Assembly: GCA_031272775.1 (NCBI GenBank)
Contig: JAISTB010000009.1
Span: 62,001 to 126,000 of the forward strand
Reading direction: 5' to 3'
Length of the DNA: 64,000 nt
Source: Fusobacteriaceae bacterium
GTDB taxonomy: Bacteria > Fusobacteriota > Fusobacteriia > Fusobacteriales > Fusobacteriaceae
The notes beneath the pieces were generated by a model. That model made no database searches and was not told the DNA's origin. It saw nothing but the letters and a program-made list of their open reading frames with translations. A program made the position numbers and the translations under genes. Numbering within the stretch: the stretch's first letter is position 1; each line of letters starts with the position of its first letter. Below are positions 2,826 through 22,184 of this stretch, one piece after another.

Positions 2826-3578
2826 ATGATTCAAAGCCTCGTCCGGGCCATGGAGCTGCTGGAAGTCTTGAACGGCAGCAAATCCAGCTATTCCATCGCC
2901 TATCTGTCTTCGGCGCTCAATCTGCCGCCCAGCACCATTCACCGCCTCTTGCAGACGCTCTGCGGCACGAAATTTGTCGTCAAGGACGAAAAATCACACG
3001 ATTACAAGTTGGGACCGGCGCTGATCCCGCTGGGGATTACGGCCCGGAAGAATTTGCATCTGCAAAATGCCGCGACGCCTATATTGGAACGCCTTGTGAC
3101 CGTCACGACCGACGATTCCTATCTCGTGATCTCCACGGGCTACAAAGGCTTCGTGCTCGAGCATATCGACGGCCCCAGCCCCCTTAAAGTACTGGAGGAT
3201 TTCGGTTTCGAACTGGACCTCCACTGCGGCGCGATCCGGAAAACGCTTCTGGCCTACCAGCCCGAGGCCTTCATTGAGGAATACATCGAGACCGTGATCA
3301 AGACGCCCAACGCCTTCCCCAAGGTGGAGCCCGCGGTCCTTTTGGAAAACCTTGAGAAAATACGAAAAGAAGGAGTCGCTGTGTCCCATGGGGACTACAT
3401 CAGCAACTCCGTCGGCATCGGCGCGCCGGTTTTCAACAGCGAGGGGAAAATCATCGCGTCCATCGGAATCATTACCCCCGCCTCGAAAATCGCGGGCGAG
3501 AAAAAACTCAATGAATTGAAGCAAACCGTGAAAACATCAGCCCAGGAACTTTCCGAAATGATGGGCTTCTTCAAATAG
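2826..3578 (+). CDS. IclR-family transcriptional regulator
   Basis: A 250-residue IclR-family protein with an N-terminal winged helix-turn-helix (residues 4-65; LPPSTIHRLLQTL is the recognition region) and a C-terminal effector-binding domain (about 75-245). The start at 2826 follows AAGGAGG by 5 bases. Longer in-frame starts upstream would run through the operator and lack a ribosome site. It is convergent with the glutamate fermentation cluster and overlaps the end of hgdB by 8 bases. A palindrome upstream of it recurs in degenerate form at the promoters of that cluster and of two TAXI-TRAP transporters, so it is the best candidate regulator of all three. The effector is unknown; glutamate, 2-hydroxyglutarate or 5-oxoproline are guesses. 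Confidence 0.88.
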   Translation: MIQSLVRAMELLEVLNGSKSSYSIAYLSSALNLPPSTIHRLLQTLCGTKFVVKDEKSHDYKLGPALIPLGITARKNLHLQNAATPILERLVTVTTDDSYLVISTGYKGFVLEHIDGPSPLKVLEDFGFELDLHCGAIRKTLLAYQPEAFIEEYIETVIKTPNAFPKVEPAVLLENLEKIRKEGVAVSHGDYISNSVGIGAPVFNSEGKIIASIGIITPASKIAGEKKLNELKQTVKTSAQELSEMMGFFK

Positions 3579-4701
3579 TCTCGGCAAAGGCCTGCAGCTG
3601 CGTCCGGGCCTGGCCGAAGTCTTCCATTTGCTGGTCATAGCCCAGAATGATGTGGGGAATCCCCGCCTCCTCAAAGGCCTTCTTCAGCGAAGGATATTCG
3701 AGCTCTTCGGGATCGCAGAACGTCATGGCGAAGACCACCGCCCCCTGCGCCCCGGTGTCTTTGGCCTTTTTCACTACATGGGCCGGCCTCTTCACAATTT
3801 CGGGATCGTACAACAGGGGATCGTTGTCCTGGGCCGCGAAATGCAGCGCCAGAGCCCGCATGGGGTCCGTCTCGTTTTCGGGCGCGTCCACGTCGAAGGA
3901 TCGCGACTCGTGAGCCACGTCGTCAGCCACAATGGCGATTTTATTTTCGTCGAAGATCTTCAGCAGGGCCGGATTGTCCACGATGATCCCCGAGGTCAGG
4001 ACCTTGACGCCGCCCCACTTGGGAACAGGCAATTTTTCAAGTTCTTCGTTCAGCTCGTCCAGCAGCTTTGTATATTGACACTTGAGCTGATAGTATCCGC
4101 TTTTGAGGACGGCGCCCCTGTCCACGGCGGAAATCACGTCGGGATGAAGTCCCGCTAATTTTACAAATTTCCGCCGGGCCGCCCGGCTTTTGTTGTATAT
4201 TTTGATGGCGTTTTGCAATTTTTCGTCGGTGACGGGGCTTCCCGCGATCTCCTCCAGTTGTTTTTTTATCTTGCCGTACTGGGCCATCGTGAACGTGATC
4301 CCGTATTCAGGCCGCCGGTTTTGCGGATGGGCCAGGAACATAAAGGGAATCTGCGGCACGGCCACGCGAAAATTCTGACTCAAGGGCCGGAGCGTATCGC
4401 ACATGGTCGTGACAATCACGCCCGAAAGACCGTCCAGAGCGCCTGTCAGGCCCATTTCGAGGTTCATTTGGGCAATCGTGCAGTAAAAGCTCGCGAAGTA
4501 TTCCTTGGCTTTATTGATCGTCCCCTGGCGTCCCCAGACGCCGAAAGGAACCATACCGGCCGCGTAGACCAGTTCCTCGGGGGCGTAGTAGGGGAAAACG
4601 CCGACGGCTTTTTTGCCTTCGTCCTTATATTGATACAGCTGTTTGCCGGGATTCGCGGCCACGTCCCGGAATGTTTGCAATAATGCGCTTATTCTTTCCA
4701 T
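3571..4701 (-). CDS. hgdB: (R)-2-hydroxyglutaryl-CoA dehydratase, beta subunit
   Basis: Subunit of the oxygen-sensitive dehydratase (component D) that removes water from (R)-2-hydroxyglutaryl-CoA to give glutaconyl-CoA through a ketyl radical. The 376-residue length fits the family. Cysteines in FYCTIAQMN, TTMCDTLRP and MTFCDPEE are placed to hold a [4Fe-4S] cluster, as known for HgdB. It starts at an ATG with a purine-rich site (GGAGG) just upstream. It is the last gene of the gcd-gct-hgd cluster and its stop overlaps the convergent iclR stop, leaving no room for a separate terminator. Other members of the 2-hydroxyacyl-CoA dehydratase family act on lactyl- or phenyllactyl-CoA; the gct and gcd neighbours point to hydroxyglutaryl-CoA. 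Confidence 0.93.
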   Translation of the reverse strand: MERISALLQTFRDVAANPGKQLYQYKDEGKKAVGVFPYYAPEELVYAAGMVPFGVWGRQGTINKAKEYFASFYCTIAQMNLEMGLTGALDGLSGVIVTTMCDTLRPLSQNFRVAVPQIPFMFLAHPQNRRPEYGITFTMAQYGKIKKQLEEIAGSPVTDEKLQNAIKIYNKSRAARRKFVKLAGLHPDVISAVDRGAVLKSGYYQLKCQYTKLLDELNEELEKLPVPKWGGVKVLTSGIIVDNPALLKIFDENKIAIVADDVAHESRSFDVDAPENETDPMRALALHFAAQDNDPLLYDPEIVKRPAHVVKKAKDTGAQGAVVFAMTFCDPEELEYPSLKKAFEEAGIPHIILGYDQQMEDFGQARTQLQAFAETI

Positions 4702-4727
4702 TTTTCCTCCAAATGTGGATCGGCATT

Positions 4728-4753
4728 GCGGGCGGCAAAATGCCGCCCCTACG
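4728..4753. repeat. REP-like hairpin element, copy 1
   Basis: The stem GGGCGGCA / TGCCGCCC with a 3-base loop is followed by CTACG. It lies in the 106-base gap between hgdA and hgdB and has sister copies at 4773 and 29008. Confidence 0.65.
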
Positions 4754-4772
4754 CGGTGATTTTTCGATCATT

Positions 4773-4798
4773 GGCGGATGTGGACATCCGCCCCTACG
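4773..4798. repeat. REP-like hairpin element, copy 2
   Basis: The stem GGCGGATG / CATCCGCC with a 4-base loop is followed by CCTACG. It is arranged in direct orientation with copy 1, 20 bases away. The compensating changes in the two arms show that the hairpin, not the primary sequence, is kept. Confidence 0.65.
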
Positions 4799-4807
4799 GG
4801 ATGATCA

Positions 4808-6037
4808 TTAATTTTTACGCAAACGGGCGTTTTCCTCCATGATTTCGTATAATCCTTCGACCCGGGTTTTGTATTGTTCTTCCGAAAAATTGCGAGGATC
4901 CGCCTGATCGCCGTCAAAGCCTGCTACGGCCACGCCGAGGTCTTTGCGGAAACGCCGTTCCATCTCGGGCATGTAGCCGCTCCAGGGCTTGCAGGAACGG
5001 TTGTAGTGGACAAGGATGCCGTCGACGTTGTTTTCGCGGCAGATCCCTTCCCGCCAGTCTACGCCGGTCTCGAGGCAAACGGAATTGGGCGCCTTGTAGT
5101 AGGCTTTCATCAATTCGTCCATGTTGTTGTAGACGAAGCCGAAGGCGGGGGCGTACACGACGGCCGTGGTGTTGATGCCTTTTTCTTTCAGGGGCGCGAA
5201 CAGCTTCTGCAGTTCGGGCCAGCAGGGAATGCCCTCAAACATGATCCGGTGGTTTTCGGCGTATTTCCACGTCGATTTGCCGGTCTTGACGTTTTCTTCG
5301 AGCTCCGCGGCCAAAGCCTCGAAGGCCTCCGCCGATTCTTTTTTGCAGCGGGCCGTCACGACGTCGGCCATGTGGTTGAAGAGGTCGAAGCCGCTGAAGG
5401 GAGAAGGCGTATACTGGCAGTAGGAACAAACCTTGAGCCAGGCCTTGGCCGTCCGGTTGGCGTTGGCGCAGACTTCCTCAAAGCGCTTCTCGTCCCACTT
5501 CCTGCCCGAAATGGCCTCCAATTTCTTGATGGCGTCCTCGAACTGCCCCCGCACGTAGGCCACGTTTTCGTCGGCCACTTCGACGGTATTGTTGTAGGGG
5601 ATGTCTATCATAATAAGCGGGATGTTGTGCATCCGCGCGATGTTTTCATACCATTTGGTCATACAGTTGCAGATGTTGTTGCAGCAAAGGAGAAAATCCG
5701 GCTGGGGCATGGCCCGTTCGTCTGCTTCATAGCCCGCTGCGTAGGCGAGGCTGATCCGGGCGTAGCCGCAGATATCGTTGTGATAGCCCATGGCTTCGGC
5801 GTGCTCGCACATCCGCTGTCCGCCGTGTTTGGCTGAAATGGCCGCCGCCTGGTTTTCCGGGTAGCAGACCGCGAGGCCCAGCGTCTCGGCAATCTCCGCG
5901 GGGAACTTGGACGAGGACCAGCCCACGGGCTCTCCTCTCTTTTTGGCGTCCCAGGCGTTCTGATACACCATATCGACCACGGCCCTGAGCGCATCCTTGG
6001 CGCCGGGCTTCTTTTCCGTCTTTTGAATTTCTGACAT
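4808..6037 (-). CDS. hgdA: (R)-2-hydroxyglutaryl-CoA dehydratase, alpha subunit
   Basis: Partner of HgdB in component D of the dehydratase. It has 409 residues, somewhat shorter than the alpha subunit of Acidaminococcus as I remember it. Seen: a conserved N-terminal region ending GWSSSKFPAEI, the cysteine-rich stretch DFLLCCNNICNCMTKWYE (about residues 115-132) expected to bind a [4Fe-4S] cluster, and a C-terminal segment DGILVHYNRSCKPWSGY typical of the family. The ATG at 6037 follows AGGAGG. It sits between hgdC (18-base gap) and hgdB, the classical hgdCAB order. Confidence 0.93.
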   Translation of the reverse strand: MSEIQKTEKKPGAKDALRAVVDMVYQNAWDAKKRGEPVGWSSSKFPAEIAETLGLAVCYPENQAAAISAKHGGQRMCEHAEAMGYHNDICGYARISLAYAAGYEADERAMPQPDFLLCCNNICNCMTKWYENIARMHNIPLIMIDIPYNNTVEVADENVAYVRGQFEDAIKKLEAISGRKWDEKRFEEVCANANRTAKAWLKVCSYCQYTPSPFSGFDLFNHMADVVTARCKKESAEAFEALAAELEENVKTGKSTWKYAENHRIMFEGIPCWPELQKLFAPLKEKGINTTAVVYAPAFGFVYNNMDELMKAYYKAPNSVCLETGVDWREGICRENNVDGILVHYNRSCKPWSGYMPEMERRFRKDLGVAVAGFDGDQADPRNFSEEQYKTRVEGLYEIMEENARLRKN

Positions 6038-6055: not shown

Positions 6056-6835
6056 CTATTTCGCCCGTTGAAAGGCGAACAGGGCCGCCCCCAAAGCCCC
6101 GTTGTATTGGGCCAGAGGCGATGTGTATACTTTGTGTCCAATTTCCTGTTCCATGGCCGTGACGACCCCGTGGTTCTGGGCGACGCCGCCGGTCATGACG
6201 ACTTCGTCCTCGATGCCGATCCGTTTGGCGAGTCCGCCGACTCTTCCGGCCACGGAGCGGTGAATGCCGCGAATAATATCCCGTTTGTCCGTCGCCTGGG
6301 CCAATTGGGAAATCACTTCCGACTCGGCGAAGACCGTGCAGGTGGAGCTGATGTTGACGACCTTGGTCGATTCCGCCGAAAGGCCCTCAAGTTCGTCGAT
6401 CCGCACTTCCAGCACGCGGGCCATCACGTCAAGAAAACGCCCCGTGCCGGCGGCGCATTTGTCGTTCATCACGAAGTTGTTCAAGAGCCCGTTGGGCGCG
6501 ATTTTCATGACCTTGGCGTCCTGTCCGCCGATGTCGATGACGGTCTTGACGCCGGGGAAGAGAAAAAAGGCCCCTTTGGCGTGGCAGCTGAGCTCGCTCA
6601 ACTGATTGGCGACGCCCTCGATGGAATAGCGGCCGTAGCCGGTGGCCAGCGTCAGTGCGATGTCTTCCATGGCGAGATTTCCCGCCTCCAGGACGGCGGC
6701 AATGGCCCGGGCCGGTCCCGAAGTCCCCGCGCCCACATCGATCAGGGATTTGGCCGCGATTTCGGTCCCGTTTTTCAAGATCACGCATTTTGAAGCCGTG
6801 GAGCCCACGTCAATGCCCAAGGTATAGATATCCAT
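6056..6835 (-). CDS. hgdC: Activator of 2-hydroxyglutaryl-CoA dehydratase (component A, ATPase)
   Basis: Homodimeric [4Fe-4S] ATPase of the ASKHA fold that injects one electron into HgdAB at the cost of ATP. Choosing the ATG at 6835 gives 259 residues, the family length. The phosphate-binding loop IDVGSTASK lies at residues 8-16 and [10 protein letters not shown] at 99-108. The two cluster ligands C127 (NDKCAAGTG) and C166 (SSTCTVFAE) fall at the same numbers as in the characterised Acidaminococcus protein. GGAGG lies upstream of this ATG. A longer reading to 6874 adds an arginine-rich leader and is not favoured. Confidence 0.94.
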
Positions 6836-6912
6836 GGTGTTCCTCCCGAAAAGCGGATCCCTCCGGCGGCGCAATCAAGCGGCCGCCGGAGCGTAATCCT
6901 GCGTCAGCCGGC

Positions 6913-8139
6913 TCAGCCGTTGGCCATTTTTGCCGCGACGTTGATAAAGTTGGTAATGATAATCGCGTTGGTGATATTGCTCAAGAATCCGCCGATGACC
7001 GGCACCACAAAGAAGGCCAGCTTGGAATAACGGTATTTTGTGCAGACCGCCTGCATGGTCGTCATGGATACGGGCACCGCGCCGAGGCCGAAGCCTGTGT
7101 GACCGACGGAAATAATGGCCGAATCGTAATTTCTTCCGCAGAGATTGAAGGTGATGAAGTAGGCGAAGAGGAGCATCAAAGCCACCTGCGCAAAGAGCAG
7201 CACGATCAGGGCCAGTCCCAGTCCTTCCAACTGCCAGAGCTTCATGGACACGATGGACATGGACACGAAAAGCGCCAGGGAGAAATCTCCGACGATGTCA
7301 ATGGCCTCATACTGGGAATCGTCCGTCGTTCCCTTCTTGTCGAGATACAGTCGGATCAGGATGCCGCCCAGCATGGCGCATACATGGATCGGGAAGCTGA
7401 CATTGAGTTTTTTCAGGATGATGAATACGGCCTGACCGATGCCCAGCGCGATACACATCATAAATACGGCGTTCAGCACATGGGGTTTCTTGACCGCGAC
7501 GCCCGCCGCCTTGGCCAGAGAAGCCACGTCGTCCTTGCCGTCCAGTTCGGGATCCTCAAAGTGGTTCTTCCGCACGAGGAAATTTCCGAAGGGTCCGCCG
7601 ACGATACAGCCGGAAATGAGTCCGAAGGTCGCCGCCGCGATGGCCACTTCCATGGCCGCGGGGGCCCCCGCCTTGACCGCCAGAGGCGCGAAAGACGCCG
7701 CGTTGCCGTGCCCGCCGGTCATGGGGATGGAACCCGTCATCAGGGCGATCAGGGGATTGATGCCCATGACCTTGCCGATACCGAGGGCCAGCACATTTTG
7801 GAGCGCCGCCAATACCGCCGCCAGGATCGCGAAGATGATCACAAGTTTTCCGCCTTTTTTCAAAAGAGCCAGACTGGCCGAAGCGCCGCTGGCCGCGAAG
7901 AAGATACATTAGAACAGGCTGTTGACCGTGGCGTAATCGTAATTGAGCTCGGCTACGCCCGCCTTGTACAGGATCAGCGACAGGATCGAAAAGATCGTCC
8001 CGCCCACGACGGAAGCTGGCAGGCAGTATTTTTTGAGAACAGGAAATTTTGCCCGCAGAAATTCGCCGAAGTAGATGGCGACCACAGAGATGCCTAACGT
8101 TTCAAACATACCGAGTTTGATCTTTAGAATTTCGTTCAT
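6913..8139 (-). pseudogene. gltS: Sodium/glutamate symporter GltS interrupted by one in-frame TAA
   Basis: Read through, this is a full-length GltS (about 408 codons) with two hydrophobic halves. Seen are the family segments LMTGSIPMTGGHGNAA and HTGFGLGAVPVSMT. The frame stays open except for one TAA at 7909-7911. It lies between ...YATVNSLF and CIFFAASGASASLALL, matching a region of GltS that is normally continuous. Nothing is deleted and the frame is unchanged, so this is a point nonsense change (or a sequence error). No good restart is visible after it: the next possible start is a TTG at 7863 without a ribosome site. The gene lies inside the glutamate fermentation operon between gcdA and hgdC. 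If truly broken, glutamate uptake would rest on other carriers. Confidence 0.85.
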
Positions 8140-8223: not shown

Positions 8224-9981
8224 TTATTTCGTATACGTATTGAATTCCCGTATCACTCTGGGCGTCAGCATCTGATGAAAAGCGCAGATGGCTTTTTTGT
8301 TCTGGTACGCCGCTTCGGTAAAGGCTTCCATATAGGGCCGCAGCGACATCATGTCGACGATCTCGTCCACCATGCCCGTAAAAGCGCAGTATTTCGGTCT
8401 GGATTTCTCCGTGTACTCCCGGATGACCTGATTCATTTTATCGATGGTGCTCTGGATATCCTTGCCCTCTTTCTGGTCCTTAACGAGCCGCCGGGCGTAC
8501 ATGGCCGCGGCCGCCGTTTCGCCGTTCATCACATAGACTTCCGTCGCCGCCGTTCCCAGCGAGAAGGCGTTGTTGTTATTGGCCTGGGGGCCGCCCAGCA
8601 CATAATGCGCCGCCGCCGTCCCCTTCCGCAGCGTGATCTCCAGATGGGGGATATCCGATACTTCGATCGAATAGATCAGCGACTGTCCGAGACCCAACAA
8701 TTCGGCTTTTTCGGCGTCATCGCCGACGTCTATGCCCGTGGTGTCCTGCAGCCAGATCATGGGAATCTTGTCCCGGGCGCAGAGCGTCACGAATTCGTTC
8801 ATCTTGACGAGACCCTGGCGGTAGAGCTTGCCGCCGATCCCGATGGAATTTTCCTTGTATTCGGGATATTTCATCAACATGCCCTGCACATTGGCTACGA
8901 CCCCCACCAAAAGTCCGTTAATCTTCGCGAGACCCGTCGCCATTTCCGGCCCGTAGCCCTTTTTGTATTCAAAAAACTCGCTGTTGTCGAAGAGCCGCGC
9001 CATGACCTCATAGATGTCGTATTGCCGCTTCTGGTTGAAGGGAACGAGGGAATACAGATCCTCTTCGGGATAAGCGGGCAGCACGGGGTCGTCGACTCTG
9101 AAGAACTCGAGATTGTAGGCGGGCAGCATGGACATGTATTTTTTGATGCCCTCCAAAACCCCTTCCTCATCCTCGTAAACTTCCCGGAAGAATCCGGTCT
9201 CGTTGTAATGGATCGGAACCGATCCCGGCGGATTGGTCTTTTTCGCGTTGACCGTGGCGTCGATCAGCGCCTGGGCGCTCTCCTTGTCCACATAGCCCTT
9301 GGGATTCATGCCGCCGAGGATGCCCGCGCCGCCGACAGCCATATTGGCGTCCTTGTGGGCCACAAGTATCGTCGGGCTGATGGAATGGTAGCCGCCTCCG
9401 GCGGGGTTCGTACCGTAGATGCCGACAATCACGGGAATCCCCAATTTTTGAAGCTCGGCGTTCCTGAAGAAGGGCGTTCCGCCGCCGCGCCGGTTGGGAT
9501 AGACTTTTTCCTGTTCGTCAAATTTGACGCCGCTGCAATTCAGCACATAGACGAGGGGAATCCCCAAAATCTTGGCCGTATCGGAGCCCCGAATCAGGTT
9601 TTCGGCCTGGCCCGGCACCCAGGCGCCCGCTAATTTTTTATTGTCCGAAGCGATGACAACGGCCCATTTGCCGCAGATCTTGGCGAGACCTTTGATGATG
9701 CCCGTCGATCCGTTGTCGTTTCCTTCGGGATTAAAGAGACTGTTCAAGGGAAACCAGGTCCCTTCGTCGATAAGCTCGGCGAGTCGCTGAATGGCGGTCA
9801 TTTGCCCCGCCTCGTTGAGGGATTCGTCGCTTCGTCCCTGGGCCTGGGCCGTCTCGATCAGTTCCTCGATTTCGTTTTCCACCGCCAGCAGCTGGTTTTT
9901 GTTCTCCTCGTTGACGATACTGAGCGGCTTTCCGATTTTGGGCATGTTTTTGAAGTAAGCGCCCATGGAATAATAACTCAT
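8224..9981 (-). CDS. gcdA: Glutaconyl-CoA decarboxylase, carboxyltransferase alpha subunit
   Basis: Transfers the carboxyl group of glutaconyl-CoA to the biotin on GcdC, producing crotonyl-CoA. The ATG at 9981 gives 585 residues, the size of the Acidaminococcus enzyme, and follows AGGAGG. The protein has two crotonase-fold carboxyltransferase halves. Diagnostic stretches are SDNKKLAGAWVPGQAE, YPNRRGGGTPFFRNAEL, YGTNPAGGGYHSISP and LQDTTGIDVGDDAEKAELLG. These are nearly identical to what I recall of GcdA and separate it from methylmalonyl- or oxaloacetate-type subunits. It lies 10 bases after gctB in the same operon. Confidence 0.95.
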   Translation of the reverse strand: MSYYSMGAYFKNMPKIGKPLSIVNEENKNQLLAVENEIEELIETAQAQGRSDESLNEAGQMTAIQRLAELIDEGTWFPLNSLFNPEGNDNGSTGIIKGLAKICGKWAVVIASDNKKLAGAWVPGQAENLIRGSDTAKILGIPLVYVLNCSGVKFDEQEKVYPNRRGGGTPFFRNAELQKLGIPVIVGIYGTNPAGGGYHSISPTILVAHKDANMAVGGAGILGGMNPKGYVDKESAQALIDATVNAKKTNPPGSVPIHYNETGFFREVYEDEEGVLEGIKKYMSMLPAYNLEFFRVDDPVLPAYPEEDLYSLVPFNQKRQYDIYEVMARLFDNSEFFEYKKGYGPEMATGLAKINGLLVGVVANVQGMLMKYPEYKENSIGIGGKLYRQGLVKMNEFVTLCARDKIPMIWLQDTTGIDVGDDAEKAELLGLGQSLIYSIEVSDIPHLEITLRKGTAAAHYVLGGPQANNNNAFSLGTAATEVYVMNGETAAAAMYARRLVKDQKEGKDIQSTIDKMNQVIREYTEKSRPKYCAFTGMVDEIVDMMSLRPYMEAFTEAAYQNKKAICAFHQMLTPRVIREFNTYTK

Positions 9982-9991
9982 GCTGTTCCTC

Positions 9992-10783
9992 CTAAACTGG
10001 TACTTTGATAAAGGCCTGGCCCGGGTCGATTTCCTCCCGGATAATGCGGATAATCTCAGGCGTCGGCGCGTCGAGAGGCGCGGCCCTCGAGACATCGATG
10101 TCAAAGCCGGTGTTTTCCTTGACGTCTTCGGGCGAGGAGGTCGGGTAATAGCCGGCCAGATACATCCGTTTCGTCTTTTCGTCGAACTTCATGACGCCCC
10201 GGTCCGTGACGACCATGACCGGTCCGCGGTTTCCCGGAAGGCCCGCTTTTTCCCGGCCGCCCGGTCCGTCCATCCAGCCGGCGCTCGTCACGTAGTCCAC
10301 CTTGTCGATGAATCTCCGCTTTTCGTGCTGCATCATGATGACCGTGTTGGAATAGGTCGCTATGCCGTTGGCGCCTCCCGACCCCGTAAATCTTGTCTTC
10401 GGGTGGTGATAATCACCGATGGACGTCGAGTTCACGTTGCCGTAGGGGTCAATCTGGGCCCCGCCGATAAAGGCGATCAGTCTGTCGCTGTCGTGCTGCC
10501 ATTCGCAGGCCTCAAAGCCGATAAATCGGATATTTGGCCACTGCACCGCGCAATGGGCCATAAAACGGATATCGCCGACGCTTCTCGGCACTTCGATGGG
10601 ATCGCAGTCCATGAGACCGCTCTCGACGATGATGTTGCACTTGGGCGCGAAGATCCGCTTGGCCACGGAAGCCCCGATCAGAGGCAGTCCCGTGCCCACG
10701 ATGACCACCTGTCCGTCTTTGATCTGCTTCGCGATGGTGACCGCCTGCATTTCCTTGTTCGTCCAATTGGTATAATCAGCCAT
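9992..10783 (-). CDS. gctB: Glutaconate CoA-transferase, subunit B
   Basis: Catalytic subunit of the class I CoA-transferase that moves CoA from acetyl-CoA or glutaconyl-CoA to (R)-2-hydroxyglutarate. It has 263 residues. The active-site glutamate is E54 (IIVESGLMD), the same position as in the crystallised Acidaminococcus enzyme. Further family motifs are FIGGAQIDPYGNVNSTSIGD and GSGGANGIAT. Its ATG overlaps the end of gctA by 8 bases, so translation is probably coupled. Confidence 0.94.
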   Translation of the reverse strand: MADYTNWTNKEMQAVTIAKQIKDGQVVIVGTGLPLIGASVAKRIFAPKCNIIVESGLMDCDPIEVPRSVGDIRFMAHCAVQWPNIRFIGFEACEWQHDSDRLIAFIGGAQIDPYGNVNSTSIGDYHHPKTRFTGSGGANGIATYSNTVIMMQHEKRRFIDKVDYVTSAGWMDGPGGREKAGLPGNRGPVMVVTDRGVMKFDEKTKRMYLAGYYPTSSPEDVKENTGFDIDVSRAAPLDAPTPEIIRIIREEIDPGQAFIKVPV

Positions 10784-15526: not shown

Positions 15527-17524
15527 TTACGCTCCGACAGCGGTTCCCGTGTCAGAAGGATTTTTCTTCGCCATGGCCTTCTGGAAGAGCACGACGACGA
15601 TCAAAATCGCAAAACCGATAATATCCGTCTTCAATCCCGGCACGATAAGCATCAGCGCGCCGACCAAAGACAGAGCCCGAACCGCCACATTGATATGGGT
15701 GTACATATAACCCTCGACGGCCGCCGACAGGAGAAATACTCCGATACAGGACGTCACCGCCGTCAGCAAGCCCTCAGACACCGTGGTATTCACGAGAAGC
15801 AGCTGGCTGTTGTAGATAAAGATATAGGGTAAAAGGAAACCCGCCAGCGCCAGTTTGACCGAAGCGACGCCGGTTTTGACCGTGTCGCCTCCGGAAATTC
15901 CCGCGGCGGCAAAGGCCGCGAGGGCCACCGGCGGCGTGATGTTGGCGAACATGGCGAAGTAGAAGCAGAAAAGATGCGCCGCCACGTCGGTTATACCGAG
16001 CTGGATCAGAGCCGGCACCGCGATCGTATAGGTGATGATATACGAGGGGATAGACGGCAGGCCCATGCCGAGAATCATGCAGGTCACCATGGTGAAGACC
16101 AGCGTCAACGGCAGGCTGGATTTTCCGAGACGGATGATGGCGCTCGCCATATTCGTCGTAAATCCGGTCTTTGTACAGGCTCCGATGATGATGCCCACGC
16201 AGGCGCAGGCCATCGCTACCGATACGGTCTGCTTGGCCGAGGAAATCAGGACCGAGCGGATGTCGTCAAGACTCATGCGGGATACTTTCCGCGTCTGGGC
16301 GATGATAACCGTGGCGATAATCGTGTAGAGCGCGCCCATAATCAGCGTCTTTCCGCTGAAAAACAGCATGTACATCAAGATCGCGATCGGAAAGGTCAGG
16401 TGCCAGTATTTCTTCATGGTGTCCTTGAAGGCCGGCAACTGGTCCTTGGGGAGACCCACAAGTTTGTCCTTGGAGGCCCGCATGTCGATCTGAAACAAAA
16501 TCCCCAGATAGTAAATGACCGCGGGTACCGCCGCGTACACGATAATCTGGCTGTACTGGATGCCCAGGGTCTCCGCCATAATAAAGGCGGCGGCGCCCAT
16601 TACGGGCGGCATCAGCTGGCCGCCTACGGAAGCCGTTGCCGAAACGGCGCCCGAAAATTCCTTACTGTAGCCGGATTTTTTCATCAGCGGAATCGTAAAG
16701 GATCCTGTCGTCACGACGTTGGCAATGGCCGAACCGTTGATCATGCCGAGAAGCCCCGCGGCCAGAACGGAAACCTTTGCGGGGCCGCCCTTGGTGCCTC
16801 CGGCCACACTGATCGCAAGGTCATTGAAAAAGGCCCCCATGCCGCATTTGTTCATGACTTCGCCGAAAACGATGAACAGGAAAATATAAGTCGACGACAC
16901 GTTTACGGACGTGCCGTAGATGCCTTCGGTGTTAATGAAAAGATGCCCGATCAGGCTGGGCCAGGCCGTGCCCCGGTGCATAAAGAGGCCCGGGAAATTG
17001 ATCTTGATCAAGCCCCCCTTGACTCCCATCAGGGCGTAAATCGTGAACAGCAGCCCGATAATCGGAAGGGCCAGTCCCGTAATCCGCCTTGAAGCCTCAA
17101 GAACCAAAAGGACGAGAATCGTCCCCATGACGACGTCCATGGTCGTCGGCGCGGCGGCCCGGTCTACTATGCTGAAATAATTGACCCACATATAGATCGG
17201 GATAGCGACGGACAGCGCCATGAGGATCCAGTCATACCACGCGATGTGTTTCCGGCTCGATTTCCGGAAGGCAGGGTACATGGCAAAGCCCAGCAGCAGG
17301 ATCGCGCCCACGTGGATGGATCTGTTCCGCAAAGTTTCCGGCATGTAAAAGCCGGAGGCATAAACCAGATGGTACAGCGTCACGAGGATGCAGGTCCACT
17401 CAAAGGCCTTCTTGACGAGAGGACTGACAAAATTCCGCGTTCGGCTTTCTTTTTCAAATTCTTCCAAAATCGCCTGTCCGTCTACTTGTTGTTCCTGAAC
17501 GATTTTGTCGATGGTGTTCTCCAT
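15527..17524 (-). CDS. TRAP transporter, fused 4TM/12TM membrane protein (TAXI type), system 2
   Basis: A 665-residue inner-membrane protein in which the small DctQ-like (about residues 40-190) and large DctM-like units are joined, as in TAXI-TRAP systems. Segments such as GGTKGGPAKVSVLAAGLLGMING, GQLMPPVMGAAAFIMAE and MVTCMILGMGLPSIPSYI (only parts are conserved) are typical. It would import an organic anion with sodium or protons, using the TAXI protein at 18150-19130. The gene lies between DUF1850 and pxpA, which suggests 5-oxoproline or a related glutamate derivative as substrate. This is inference from the neighbours. Confidence 0.88.
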   Translation of the reverse strand: MENTIDKIVQEQQVDGQAILEEFEKESRTRNFVSPLVKKAFEWTCILVTLYHLVYASGFYMPETLRNRSIHVGAILLLGFAMYPAFRKSSRKHIAWYDWILMALSVAIPIYMWVNYFSIVDRAAAPTTMDVVMGTILVLLVLEASRRITGLALPIIGLLFTIYALMGVKGGLIKINFPGLFMHRGTAWPSLIGHLFINTEGIYGTSVNVSSTYIFLFIVFGEVMNKCGMGAFFNDLAISVAGGTKGGPAKVSVLAAGLLGMINGSAIANVVTTGSFTIPLMKKSGYSKEFSGAVSATASVGGQLMPPVMGAAAFIMAETLGIQYSQIIVYAAVPAVIYYLGILFQIDMRASKDKLVGLPKDQLPAFKDTMKKYWHLTFPIAILMYMLFFSGKTLIMGALYTIIATVIIAQTRKVSRMSLDDIRSVLISSAKQTVSVAMACACVGIIIGACTKTGFTTNMASAIIRLGKSSLPLTLVFTMVTCMILGMGLPSIPSYIITYTIAVPALIQLGITDVAAHLFCFYFAMFANITPPVALAAFAAAGISGGDTVKTGVASVKLALAGFLLPYIFIYNSQLLLVNTTVSEGLLTAVTSCIGVFLLSAAVEGYMYTHINVAVRALSLVGALMLIVPGLKTDIIGFAILIVVVLFQKAMAKKNPSDTGTAVGA

Positions 17525-18149: not shown

Positions 18150-19130
18150 TTAATTGAGCGGCGTTTTGTAGCCCGCTTCCTTCCAATATTTCGCCGCGCC
18201 GTCGTGCAGGGGAATCGTTACGTCCTCCACGCCGAAGGTAACGTCGATGTTCTTGTCGGCGGCGTTGTGGGAGGCCTTGATCGTGGCGATGTTCTCGAAG
18301 ATCACCTTCATCATGTCATAGACCACTTCGTCGGACAACTCTTTGCTGACGAGCATGATGTTGTACACGAATACGGACTGCACGTCTTCTTTATTGTTGT
18401 AGGTGCCCGCGGGAATCACGGTCTTGGCGAAGAAGGGATACTTGGATACGAGTCCGTCGCGGCCCGCGCCGTCGATGGGCACAATGACCATCTTGTACTG
18501 GGTGGCCAGTTCCATAACGGTGCCGTTGGGCAGTCCCGAGGTCACGAAGGCCGCGTCGCACTGGCCGTTTTTCATCTGGTCAATGGCTTCGCCGTAGGAC
18601 AGATAGTCCACTTTGCTGTCTTCATAAGTCAATCCATAAGCTTCATAAATCATCCGGGCGTTGAGTTCCACGCCGGAATTGGGAGCGCCAACGCCGACGC
18701 GCTTGCCTTTGAGGTCGGCGGGGCTTTTGATGCCCGTACCTTCGAGGGTGACGAGTTGCACATAATTGGGCCACAAGCGCATCATGGCGCGCAAATTCTT
18801 GTCCGCAGTCTTGTACGCGCCGTAGCCCTCATAAGCCTGCATTACGGAATCCTGCATGGCGATGGCGATTTCCGCCTCTCCCTTCTGGATCATCGTAATG
18901 TTCTGGGCCGAAGCGCCCGTAGACTGGGAACTGGTCTTGTAGCCGCCGGCCTTGAGGGCTTCCGCGAAGGCCGCGCCGATGGGGAAATAAATCCCGCTGG
19001 AAGGTCCCGTGGCCACGGTGATAAACTCGCTGCCGCGGTCTACGGCGGCTACCGCGGGTTTACCCGCCAGGGTCAACACAATTGCCATCAAGCTTACCAT
19101 GAACAGTGACGCTTTCAAAAATCTTTTCAT
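18150..19130 (-). CDS. TAXI-family TRAP transporter solute receptor, system 2
   Basis: A 326-residue secreted or periplasmic binding protein: an N-terminal signal peptide (FLKASLFMVSLMAIVLTLAG), then the TAXI domain opening with FITVATGPSSGIYFPIGAA and containing SAQNITMIQKGEAEIAIAMQD and KRVGVGAPNSGVELNARMI. It feeds the fused TRAP membrane protein downstream. TAXI proteins with known ligands bind glutamate, glutamine or related acids; here the oxoprolinase genes in the same unit suggest 5-oxoproline or glutamate. It has its own promoter and operator. Confidence 0.88.
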   Translation of the reverse strand: MKRFLKASLFMVSLMAIVLTLAGKPAVAAVDRGSEFITVATGPSSGIYFPIGAAFAEALKAGGYKTSSQSTGASAQNITMIQKGEAEIAIAMQDSVMQAYEGYGAYKTADKNLRAMMRLWPNYVQLVTLEGTGIKSPADLKGKRVGVGAPNSGVELNARMIYEAYGLTYEDSKVDYLSYGEAIDQMKNGQCDAAFVTSGLPNGTVMELATQYKMVIVPIDGAGRDGLVSKYPFFAKTVIPAGTYNNKEDVQSVFVYNIMLVSKELSDEVVYDMMKVIFENIATIKASHNAADKNIDVTFGVEDVTIPLHDGAAKYWKEAGYKTPLN

Positions 19131-19204: not shown

Positions 19205-19233
19205 ATTGTACCCCATATTTCTATTTTTGTCAA
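19205..19233 (-). promoter_or_regulatory. Predicted strong sigma-70 promoter for the TAXI-TRAP 2 / pxpAB operon
   Basis: Minus strand: TTGACA at 19228-19233 and TACAAT at 19205-19210, 17 bases apart. The -35 box overlaps the stop codon of the upstream TRAP gene (19230-19232). It shares the words CCCCAT and CAATAAGTC with the gcd promoter region, hinting at common origin. Confidence 0.75.
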
Positions 19234-21080
19234 TAAGTCTGTGTATTTTTGGTAAATGCCAGCTGCCACACGAGAAATACCGCAAAACAGGCAATCCCGG
19301 CGATCGTCGAGATCTTCTCGGGGATAATCATCAAAAGGCCGATCAGGACGAGCAAAATCCGTATGAACACGCCGATTTTTGCCCGGAGGAAGCCGATCAT
19401 GCCGACGGCCACGGACCAGAGCCCGATAATGGCCGGAATGACGGCAAGAATGATGTCTTTGGCGGATCCGAGGCCCAGCAGGGCCGGATTGTACACAAAG
19501 ACATAGGGAATCAAAAATGTGATAAAACTGTATTTGAAGGCCTCGATTCCCGTATCCCAGAACGGCGTTTTCGCCACGCCCGCGGCCGTATAGGAGGCGA
19601 GGGCCACGGGAGGCGTGATCATCGAGAGATTGGCGAAATAAAAAATGTAGAAGTGGGCCACGATCAAGGGCACGCCGATCTTTTTCAAAGCCGGCGCCAA
19701 AAGCGTCGCCGACATGATGTAGGCCGCGCTTGTGGGCATGCCCATGCCCATAATGATCACGAGAACCATGGCGAGCACGAGGGCCAACCAAAGGCGGTTT
19801 CCGGCCATTTTGGAGATTTCCTGGCTGATCATGAGCCCGAGACTCGTATAACTGAGAATCCCGACGATGATCCCGGCCACCGCGCAGGGGATGGCTACGA
19901 CCACGGCGGAATTGGCCCCGTCGATCAGCGTGTTGATGAACTTGACCACGCCGAGCCGGGAGTCTTTCCGGGCCGAGGCGAGCACGACGAGAACGATCAG
20001 CGAGTAAGACGAGGCGAGCCGCACGGTCTTTCCGATCGCGATCAGATACACGAGCAGAATCAACGGGATCAGCAGGTAAAAATACCGGATGATCATCTTT
20101 TTCAGCGCGCCGGTGTCGACGGGCTTCGATTTGATGTTATATTTTTTCGCGTAATAATGCACGATGAAGACGAGAGACAGGATGTAGAGCGTCGCCGGTA
20201 TGATGGCGTAAAGAACGATCGTAAAATACGACATGCCCACATAGTCGGCCATCAAGAAGGCGGCGGCCCCCATGACCGGCGGAATGATCTGCCCGGCCGA
20301 TCCCGCGATGGCGAGGATGGCCGCCGTGAATTTGGGCTCAAAGCCCGAATCCACAACGGATTCGTAGGTCAGCGTCCCCACGGAGGCCACATTTGCCGCG
20401 GCGCTTCCGCTGATGGTCCCGAAGAGCCCGCAGGCCACGACCATGGATTTCGCTTCCCCGCCGACCATTTTGCTCGTGATGAACTTGGCCAGGGAAATGA
20501 AGAGCTTCCCCGCCGGCGTCGCCGAAAGGAAGGCCCCGAAGATCATAAAGTAAAATACCGTATCGGCGGAGACCCCTGTGGCTGTGCCGAGGATGCCGTT
20601 TGTGGAGACATACTGCAACTCGATCATGCTCGAAGCGTTCATGCCGCGATGGGTGAGCACGCCGGGCAGCATTTTCCCCGCAAAGCCGTAGACGATAAAG
20701 ACGAGGCAGACGATGGTCATGGAAAGACCGAGCATCCGGCGGCAGGACTCGATCAATAAAATCATGACGATCCCGCCGAGGATCAGTTCTATCGGCGTCA
20801 TATCGGTGATATAGAGCATCCGCGCCATGATCCGGGCCGAATCAAAATAGAGAAAAGCGCCGCAGATAATGGCGAGAATCGCGCAGAAGAAATCCACGGC
20901 CTTTCCGATCAGCGGGTCGCCGGCGAGGAAGGGTTTTGACAAAAAAACCATGGCGATCGCAAAACCGATGTGGATTCCCCGCAGACCGATCGTCGAGATC
21001 CCCGCCTTGAAGCAGGCGTAGATCTGGAAGGCCACCCAAATCAACGCGACAATATTCCGAAAAATCTTTCGTGCTCCCAC
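19230..21080 (-). CDS. TRAP transporter, fused 4TM/12TM membrane protein (TAXI type), system 1
   Basis: A 616-residue polytopic inner-membrane protein with fused DctQ- and DctM-like parts. Typical DctM blocks are CGLFGTISGSAAANVASVG, GSAGQIIPPVMGAAAFLMA and VIIMGMGMPTSAAYIM. It lies 12 bases after the TAXI receptor gene at 21093-22118, its obvious partner. The predicted start is a GTG at 21080 with only a weak ribosome site. The substrate is unknown; the shared operator with the glutamate operon suggests an acidic amino acid or a 2-oxo/2-hydroxy acid. The protein is clearly diverged from the second TRAP protein at 15.5-17.5 kb. Confidence 0.88.
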   Translation of the reverse strand: MGARKIFRNIVALIWVAFQIYACFKAGISTIGLRGIHIGFAIAMVFLSKPFLAGDPLIGKAVDFFCAILAIICGAFLYFDSARIMARMLYITDMTPIELILGGIVMILLIESCRRMLGLSMTIVCLVFIVYGFAGKMLPGVLTHRGMNASSMIELQYVSTNGILGTATGVSADTVFYFMIFGAFLSATPAGKLFISLAKFITSKMVGGEAKSMVVACGLFGTISGSAAANVASVGTLTYESVVDSGFEPKFTAAILAIAGSAGQIIPPVMGAAAFLMADYVGMSYFTIVLYAIIPATLYILSLVFIVHYYAKKYNIKSKPVDTGALKKMIIRYFYLLIPLILLVYLIAIGKTVRLASSYSLIVLVVLASARKDSRLGVVKFINTLIDGANSAVVVAIPCAVAGIIVGILSYTSLGLMISQEISKMAGNRLWLALVLAMVLVIIMGMGMPTSAAYIMSATLLAPALKKIGVPLIVAHFYIFYFANLSMITPPVALASYTAAGVAKTPFWDTGIEAFKYSFITFLIPYVFVYNPALLGLGSAKDIILAVIPAIIGLWSVAVGMIGFLRAKIGVFIRILLVLIGLLMIIPEKISTIAGIACFAVFLVWQLAFTKNTQTY

Positions 21081-21092
21081 CCTTTTTCCCCC

Positions 21093-22118
21093 TTATTTGA
21101 TCAAGCCGATCTCACGATAATATTTTTCCGCGCCCGGATGCAGGGGGAAACCGCCGTAGAGTTCAGGCGTAGCGCAGGCTTCGCGGTTGAAGTTGCCGAG
21201 TCCCGCGTGACCGGTTTTCAGTTCCTCGGGATTCTCGTAGATCTGTTTTACGATGCGATAGGCGATTTCGTCGGGCAGATCCGTCGTCGTCACAATATTG
21301 GTCGTGATGCCGGCGCAAATGACGTCTTTCGTCTGTTTGTTGAAGCTGTTGGCGGGCATGGTGGCGACGCTGTAGCCGTTCCCTTTCAGGTATTCAAGGG
21401 ACTGCTCGTCAAGCTCGCCCACGGTGACGTCGGCGGTCGTGCAGAGTTCCGTAAAAGCGGGATGACCAACGGATACGTGCTGCATGAAGAAGTCGCACTT
21501 GCCGTCCTGATAAGCGGCCACGATGCTGGCAAAATCCGTATGAGTCACGGAACCGCCCCATTTGATGATGTCTTCATAGGAACAGCCGATGGATTCCAGC
21601 ACGAGCCGGGTCGTATATTCGCTGGCGGAACCGGTTTCCGACGTGTAAACATTGATCGGCATTTTCTTTTCGGCGATGTCCCGGATGCGGGTAAAGCCCG
21701 CTCCGTTCCGGATCGCGATGCCGACATACATCTGGTCGATGGTCCCTACGAGTCCGCGCAGTTTGGGAATGGCGCCGCTTTCCTGAAAAGCCAGGATCCC
21801 TTTGTAGGCCCAGGCGTTTGTACAGTTGAAACCTAGACCGATATCGGCCTTTCCGGCTTTCAGCAAGAGCATATTGCCGACGCCGCCGGAATTGGGCATA
21901 ACGTCAATTTTGAGACCCGTATCATGCGAGGTCACCACATTGGCCACCGTCGCGCCGTACACGTACCAGGAACTGCCCACGGCAAGCGTCGCGAACTGGA
22001 CGGTTTTGTCGACCTTGTCGCCGGGATTGAACGTATACTTGGCGTGGCTCGTCGTAAAAGCGGTCAGGAATAACACAAGGGCAAACAGCACAGCAGTAAT
22101 TCTTTTCACTTTTCTCAT
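21093..22118 (-). CDS. TAXI-family TRAP transporter solute receptor, system 1
   Basis: A 341-residue exported binding protein. Its signal peptide ends near TTSHA-K, and the TAXI domain contains FATLAVGSSWYVYGATVAN, MPNSGGVGNMLLLKAGKAD and VYTSETGSASEYTTRLVL. The ATG at 22118 (MRKVKRITAV) follows AAGGAGG; the longer reading to 22166 would pass through the operator. It is the first gene of the TAXI-TRAP 1 unit, with a good promoter and operator upstream. Confidence 0.88.
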   Translation of the reverse strand: MRKVKRITAVLFALVLFLTAFTTSHAKYTFNPGDKVDKTVQFATLAVGSSWYVYGATVANVVTSHDTGLKIDVMPNSGGVGNMLLLKAGKADIGLGFNCTNAWAYKGILAFQESGAIPKLRGLVGTIDQMYVGIAIRNGAGFTRIRDIAEKKMPINVYTSETGSASEYTTRLVLESIGCSYEDIIKWGGSVTHTDFASIVAAYQDGKCDFFMQHVSVGHPAFTELCTTADVTVGELDEQSLEYLKGNGYSVATMPANSFNKQTKDVICAGITTNIVTTTDLPDEIAYRIVKQIYENPEELKTGHAGLGNFNREACATPELYGGFPLHPGAEKYYREIGLIK

Positions 22119-22160
22119 AAAAATATCCTCCTTTCGTTGTCCAAAATTTTGTGTTTGTCT

Positions 22161-22184
22161 TTCCATAATGTGGAACGCATACCG
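22161..22184. promoter_or_regulatory. Putative IclR operator of the TAXI-TRAP 1 unit
   Basis: TTCCATAATGTGGAACGCAT (22161-22180) is identical over 20 bases to 13847-13866. The dyad TTCCA-N5-TGGAA is perfect; the third half-site is degenerate (TACCG instead of TTTCA). It lies about 20-40 bases after the predicted transcription start. Confidence 0.62.

What the first reader, a model, noticed from the sequence alone, without database searches (positions are those of the whole stretch)
7864..7950. Single in-frame TAA splits an otherwise intact gltS
The frame continues without shift on both sides of the TAA at 7909-7911, and both halves match GltS. The surrounding operon is intact, so loss of this carrier may be recent, tolerated because two TAXI-TRAP systems are present, or it may be a sequence error. 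TAA excludes selenocysteine or pyrrolysine recoding.
Basis: seen in the sequence. Interest (0 to 1): 0.58.

Follow-up and report, generated by a model that had tools for sequence, protein, structure and literature searches.

The report
Freshly broken glutamate transporter gene
In a relative of Fusobacterium, a glutamate transporter gene inside a glutamate-fermentation operon carries one premature stop codon in an otherwise pristine sequence, most likely a very recent gene loss (or a sequence error) of an ordinary kind.

Summary
gltS lies on the minus strand (8139-6913); codon 77 is TAA (7911-7909), the frame is open on both sides, and both parts match Glt_symporter. All 68 non-own tblastn rows covering the site have a sense codon; the 33 rows of at least 58% identity all have tyrosine. 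It is the only GltS-family gene found in this genome. Apart from the stop, it departs from none of 126 columns invariant in 28 relatives, so any loss is very recent. gcdA-gltS-hgdC is an old gene order. The sister G001 lacks gltS cleanly at this place, though it carries other GltS-family genes. Nothing supports recoding: no UUA-anticodon tRNA was seen and TAA is an ordinary terminator here. Two TAXI-TRAP systems are present, but G002 has orthologues of both beside an intact gltS, so they do not explain the loss. A consensus error cannot be excluded without reads. Recent nonsense mutation about 0.68; sequence error or minority variant about 0.26. Low interest.

The parts
6913..8139 (-). gltS (sodium/glutamate symporter, ESS family), interrupted
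   Evidence: PF03616 309.9 bits read through, 1 TAA inside; translation
7909..7911 (-). premature TAA at codon 77, where all 33 close rows have tyrosine; within the third long helix in a model of the G002 orthologue (helix 64-80, site = residue 71 of that model)
7912..8139 (-). 76-codon truncated N-terminal ORF
   Evidence: PF03616 40.7 bits
6913..7863 (-). C-terminal remainder (316 aa counted from a TTG; no evident ribosome-binding site read upstream)
   Evidence: PF03616 246.3 bits; sequence
8224..9981 (-). gcdA-like carboxyl transferase (glutaconyl-CoA decarboxylase alpha), directly upstream of gltS
   Evidence: PF01039 381.8 bits; extent from alignment to G001
6056..6836 (-). hgdC-like activator ATPase, directly downstream
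   Evidence: PF01869 226.9 bits for the ORF 6056-6874; ATG at 6836 read from the sequence
3571..6037 (-). two 2-hydroxyglutaryl-CoA dehydratase D-component genes (hgdA 4808-6037, hgdB 3571-4701)
   Evidence: PF06050
9992..13823 (-). two CoA-transferase subunits, Na+-decarboxylase beta subunit, biotin carrier and gamma chain: rest of the pathway cluster
   Evidence: PF01144 twice; PF03977, PF00364, PF04277
15527..22166 (-). two TAXI-TRAP systems (DctM 15527-17524 with TAXI protein 18150-19130; DctM 19230-21080 with TAXI protein 21093-22166)
   Evidence: PF06808, PF16868; TIGR02122 over cut-off for both TAXI proteins

Best explanation
gltS is the sodium/glutamate importer gene of an old glutamate-fermentation (2-hydroxyglutarate pathway) operon. 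In this genome a recent single-base change turned a conserved tyrosine codon inside the third membrane helix into TAA. Translation should stop after 76 residues, leaving about two and a half membrane helices and no working transporter; the downstream hgdC has its own start signal and the operon is otherwise whole. The gene has not yet decayed further. Shown: the stop, the conserved tyrosine in relatives, the intact remainder, no second GltS-family gene found in this genome, and the clean absence of gltS from the same operon position in sister G001. Inferred: that the change is real in the living population, that no carrier is made, and that glutamate enters by another route.
For: Sense codon in 68 of 68 non-own rows that cover the site, Tyr (TAT/TAC) in the 33 rows of 58% identity or more (at least two of these repeat a contig: L032=L003, L070=L007). 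Only GltS match in this genome. Of 126 columns invariant in 28 relatives, G000 departs at one, the stop; a neutral simulation gives P=0.06 at 0.01 and 0.011 at 0.015 substitutions per site since loss, far less than the 13-31% DNA difference from G001 in the main flanking matches. gcdA-gltS-hgdC order in 9 further loci from separate records (L003, L004, L005, L006, L007, L034, L044, L051, L058), so gltS is ancestral there; in G001 gcdA and hgdC are about a dozen bases apart and the gltS region has no DNA match in G001. No other broken gene in 51,767 aligned bases, so this is not a generally error-ridden stretch. The change is a substitution outside a homopolymer.
Against: No relaxed selection is visible, which is equally what a base-calling or consensus error would look like. 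G001 carries two other GltS-family genes, so its loss is no strict precedent for a genome left with none. No reads, and no second genome of the same species, were available.
Confidence: 0.68

Rival explanations
1. The TAA is a consensus or assembly error, or a minority strain variant taken up in the consensus; the population has an intact gltS.
For: Gene otherwise pristine. Cooley and Wright 2024 (PMC11017572; abstract and search passages seen) show that many internal-stop pseudogenes in assemblies are errors. The genome is a draft of 41 contigs, and no tRNA-Ala or tRNA-Ile appeared among the tRNAs found.
Against: Only one internal stop in 51,767 aligned bases; a substitution, not an indel, and not in a homopolymer; the gene has been lost in the sister.
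Confidence: 0.26
2. The TAA is read through or suppressed, giving some full-length GltS.
For: Full conservation of the invariant columns on both sides of the stop.
Against: None of the tRNAs found (43 Rfam matches, read by ARAGORN on 40 loci) has anticodon UUA (Ala and Ile tRNAs were not seen, so the set is incomplete). TAA ends 28 of 57 genes of my hand-picked window list. No relative has a stop here.
Confidence: 0.03
3. Translation restarts after the stop and the two pieces together form a split carrier.
For: The C-terminal part is a 316-codon open frame from a TTG 45 bases after the stop.
Against: No evident ribosome-binding site before the TTG in the sequence read; the break lies inside a helix, residue 71 of helix 64-80 in the model; no relative examined has a stop at this site.
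Confidence: 0.03

Closest known systems
GltS, glutamate:Na+ symporter (ESS family, PF03616, TIGR00210)
   Same: Both parts match PF03616 in order; read through it scores 309.9 bits. The intact G002 orthologue is a full-length member.
   Different: One in-frame TAA at codon 77. The G002 orthologue scores 307.8 against TIGR00210's cut-off of 310.75, so this subfamily sits just under that named equivalog model.
Glutamate fermentation by the 2-hydroxyglutarate pathway (operons of Acidaminococcus and Fusobacterium; pathway name recalled)
   Same: CoA transferase, Na+-decarboxylase subunits, two dehydratase subunits and activator together; gcdA-gltS-hgdC order as in Fusobacteriaceae relatives and Treponema vincentii.
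   Different: The carrier gene is broken here and absent from this place in sister G001.
TAXI-GltS systems (Jaques et al. 2025, PMC12344293; abstract and section 17 seen)
   Same: GltS and TAXI binding proteins occur in one neighbourhood.
   Different: Here each TAXI gene lies with its own DctM permease gene, about 10 kb from gltS, so they look like ordinary TAXI-TRAPs.

Membership tests
GltS / ESS family (PF03616) | Match over the Pfam cut-off (26 bits) | tested here: met
   40.7 and 246.3 bits for the parts, 309.9 read through
GltS / ESS family (PF03616) | Sodium-dependent glutamate transport | not testable with these tools
   needs a transport assay
GltS equivalog (TIGR00210) | Score over 310.75 bits | tested here: not met
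   Parts 249.5 and 33.0; intact G002 orthologue 307.8, narrowly below
Recent nonsense pseudogene | Premature stop where relatives have a sense codon | tested here: met
   68 of 68 non-own covering rows
Recent nonsense pseudogene | Little or no further decay | tested here: met
   0 of the other 125 invariant columns changed, no other stop
Recent nonsense pseudogene | Mutation present in the population (reads) | not testable with these tools
   no reads held
Stop-codon recoding | Suppressor tRNA with anticodon UUA | tested here: not met
   none among the tRNAs found; Ala and Ile tRNAs not seen, so the set is incomplete
Stop-codon recoding | Stop conserved among relatives | tested here: not met
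   0 of 68 non-own covering rows

The most novel reading that the evidence does not exclude
The TAA in this gltS is partly read through, so that the cell still makes a little full-length carrier, which would explain why nothing else in the gene has changed.
Probability: 0.03. Interest if true: 0.6.

Novelty: new member of a known kind. Interest (0 to 1): 0.15.

Why it matters
If real, it catches carrier loss at its first step in a glutamate-fermenting operon and, with the clean absence in G001, suggests that the carrier of this operon has been lost more than once within one genus. It also warns against reading this genome as having a working GltS. As a single stop codon it is otherwise ordinary.

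Tried and rejected
TAXI-TRAP redundancy as the reason: rejected as unsupported, because G002 has orthologues of both TRAPs and an intact gltS. One ancestral stop followed by deletion in G001: disfavoured, because constraint on this gltS lasted well past the split. A stop at the same place in another relative: G021 was listed with '1 TAA', but its alignment shows Tyr at the site and no stop inside. Recoding: no suppressor tRNA seen. Literature: Fusobacteriaceae + termite gut + metagenome-assembled genomes gave 0 papers; Fusobacteriaceae + termite gave 22, none on this gene judging by the 8 titles and abstract starts listed; gltS + glutaconyl-CoA decarboxylase + hydroxyglutarate (two of three) gave 21, 15 listed; a readthrough search gave 7, 6 listed, none evidently on such a case. 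No solved structure matched the intact orthologue by sequence.

Full report
Observation. On the minus strand, 8139-6913 encodes GltS in one frame with a single internal TAA at 7911-7909. Both parts match PF03616 in the right order. In an AlphaFold model of the intact G002 orthologue (mean pLDDT 84.5) the site, residue 71 of that model, lies within helix 64-80, the third long helix, so a 76-residue product would lack nearly all of the carrier. The mapping of codon 77 to model residue 71 follows from the alignments.

Relatives. Of the tblastn rows that cover the site, the two from this genome have TAA and the other 68 have a sense codon: Tyr in the 33 with at least 58% identity, Met in 34 and Gln in one among the more distant. 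At least two of the 33 rows repeat a contig. Three further rows did not cover the site.

Age. I aligned G000 with 28 relatives; left out were own copies, two repeats, one minus-strand locus (L005), hits under 58% identity and short hits. Identity to outgroups is similar for G000 and for intact G002: 71.4 against 71.2% (L056), 69.7 against 68.4% (L004); the largest gaps against G000 are 63.4 against 67.4% (L046) and 61.7 against 65.4% (L042). 126 columns are invariant in the 28 others; G000 departs only at the stop. A neutral simulation makes more than about 1% substitution per site since the loss unlikely (P=0.06 at 1%, 0.011 at 1.5%; simple model, transitions half of all changes, indels ignored). 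Amino-acid difference from G002 is 11 of 70 aligned codons before and 73 of 328 after the stop; this slightly higher figure after the stop is not decay by itself. The loss is either very young or not real.

Neighbourhood and history. The operon holds CoA-transferase, sodium-decarboxylase, dehydratase and activator genes of the 2-hydroxyglutarate route (pathway name recalled). gcdA followed by gltS and hgdC is seen in 9 further loci from separate records (L003, L004, L005, L006, L007, L034, L044, L051, L058; L032, L070 and L121 repeat some of them), while many other loci show gltS without these neighbours, so the order is old but not universal. Only three genomes of the genus are held. G002 (its contig of 17,010 bases has the length of JAITPM010000122.1, a Fusobacteriaceae MAG titled Pq454_bin26) keeps gltS intact. 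G001, 82-87% identical over this operon, has none: gcdA's stop and hgdC's start are about a dozen bases apart on one contig, and the gltS region gave no DNA match in G001. G001 instead carries, between hgdB and iclR, a 2-hydroxyacid-dehydrogenase-like gene and a divergent GltS-family gene (L206:5245-6318 and 6380-7768), and elsewhere another GltS-family gene. So the carrier of this operon has been lost and perhaps replaced once already in the genus; because constraint lasted in G000, a real stop here would be a second, independent event.

Control for errors. Protein segments of G001 and G002 cover 51,767 of the window's 64,000 bases; apart from gltS no stop falls inside a gene, and the one secondary-frame match lies at the gctB/gcdA overlap. 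The assembly is therefore not generally error-ridden here; the remaining 12 kb was not tested. But Cooley and Wright 2024 (PMC11017572; abstract and search passages read) show that internal stops in assemblies are often errors, and a pristine gene with one stop is what an error looks like. I give 0.26 to that.

Recoding. The 43 tRNA matches of Rfam, read by ARAGORN on 40 loci that cover them, include no UUA anticodon; tRNA-Ala and tRNA-Ile were not seen, so the set is incomplete. TAA ends 28 of 57 genes in a list that I picked by hand. No relative shares the stop. Read-through remains only formally open.

Tolerance. Two TAXI-TRAP systems are confirmed. G002 has orthologues of both and an intact gltS; G001, without gltS, gave an orthologue of the first only. 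All three genomes have at least four TAXI-family genes over cut-off and at least one SDF-family transporter. Which of these, if any, brings in glutamate is unknown.

Verdict. A correct observation of an ordinary kind: most likely a very recent nonsense mutation in the only GltS-family gene found in the genome, with a clean loss of the orthologue in a sister. Interest 0.15.

Noticed in passing
L206:5245-7768 (G001 contig C96): Sister genome G001, which lacks gltS in the operon, carries between hgdB and iclR a 2-hydroxyacid-dehydrogenase-like gene and a divergent 462-aa GltS-family permease (PF03616 73.6 bits, far under the gltS equivalog cut-off); neither lies at that place in G000 or G002. Possibly a swap of the operon's carrier.
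   Followed up: partly
window 6861-6891: A strong hairpin between gltS and hgdC; the surrounding 76 bases fold at -40.2 kcal/mol, z -3.2 against shuffles. Only copy in the window at up to 3 mismatches.
   Followed up: partly
window 9857-9992: At the gctB/gcdA overlap the G001 gctB segment runs on in another frame past the place where this genome's gctB ends; perhaps a length difference of the gctB end.
   Followed up: no
whole genome G000 (41 contigs): No tRNA-Ala or tRNA-Ile among the tRNAs found in a genome rated 99% complete; perhaps missing with the rRNA operons of a draft assembly.
   Followed up: no
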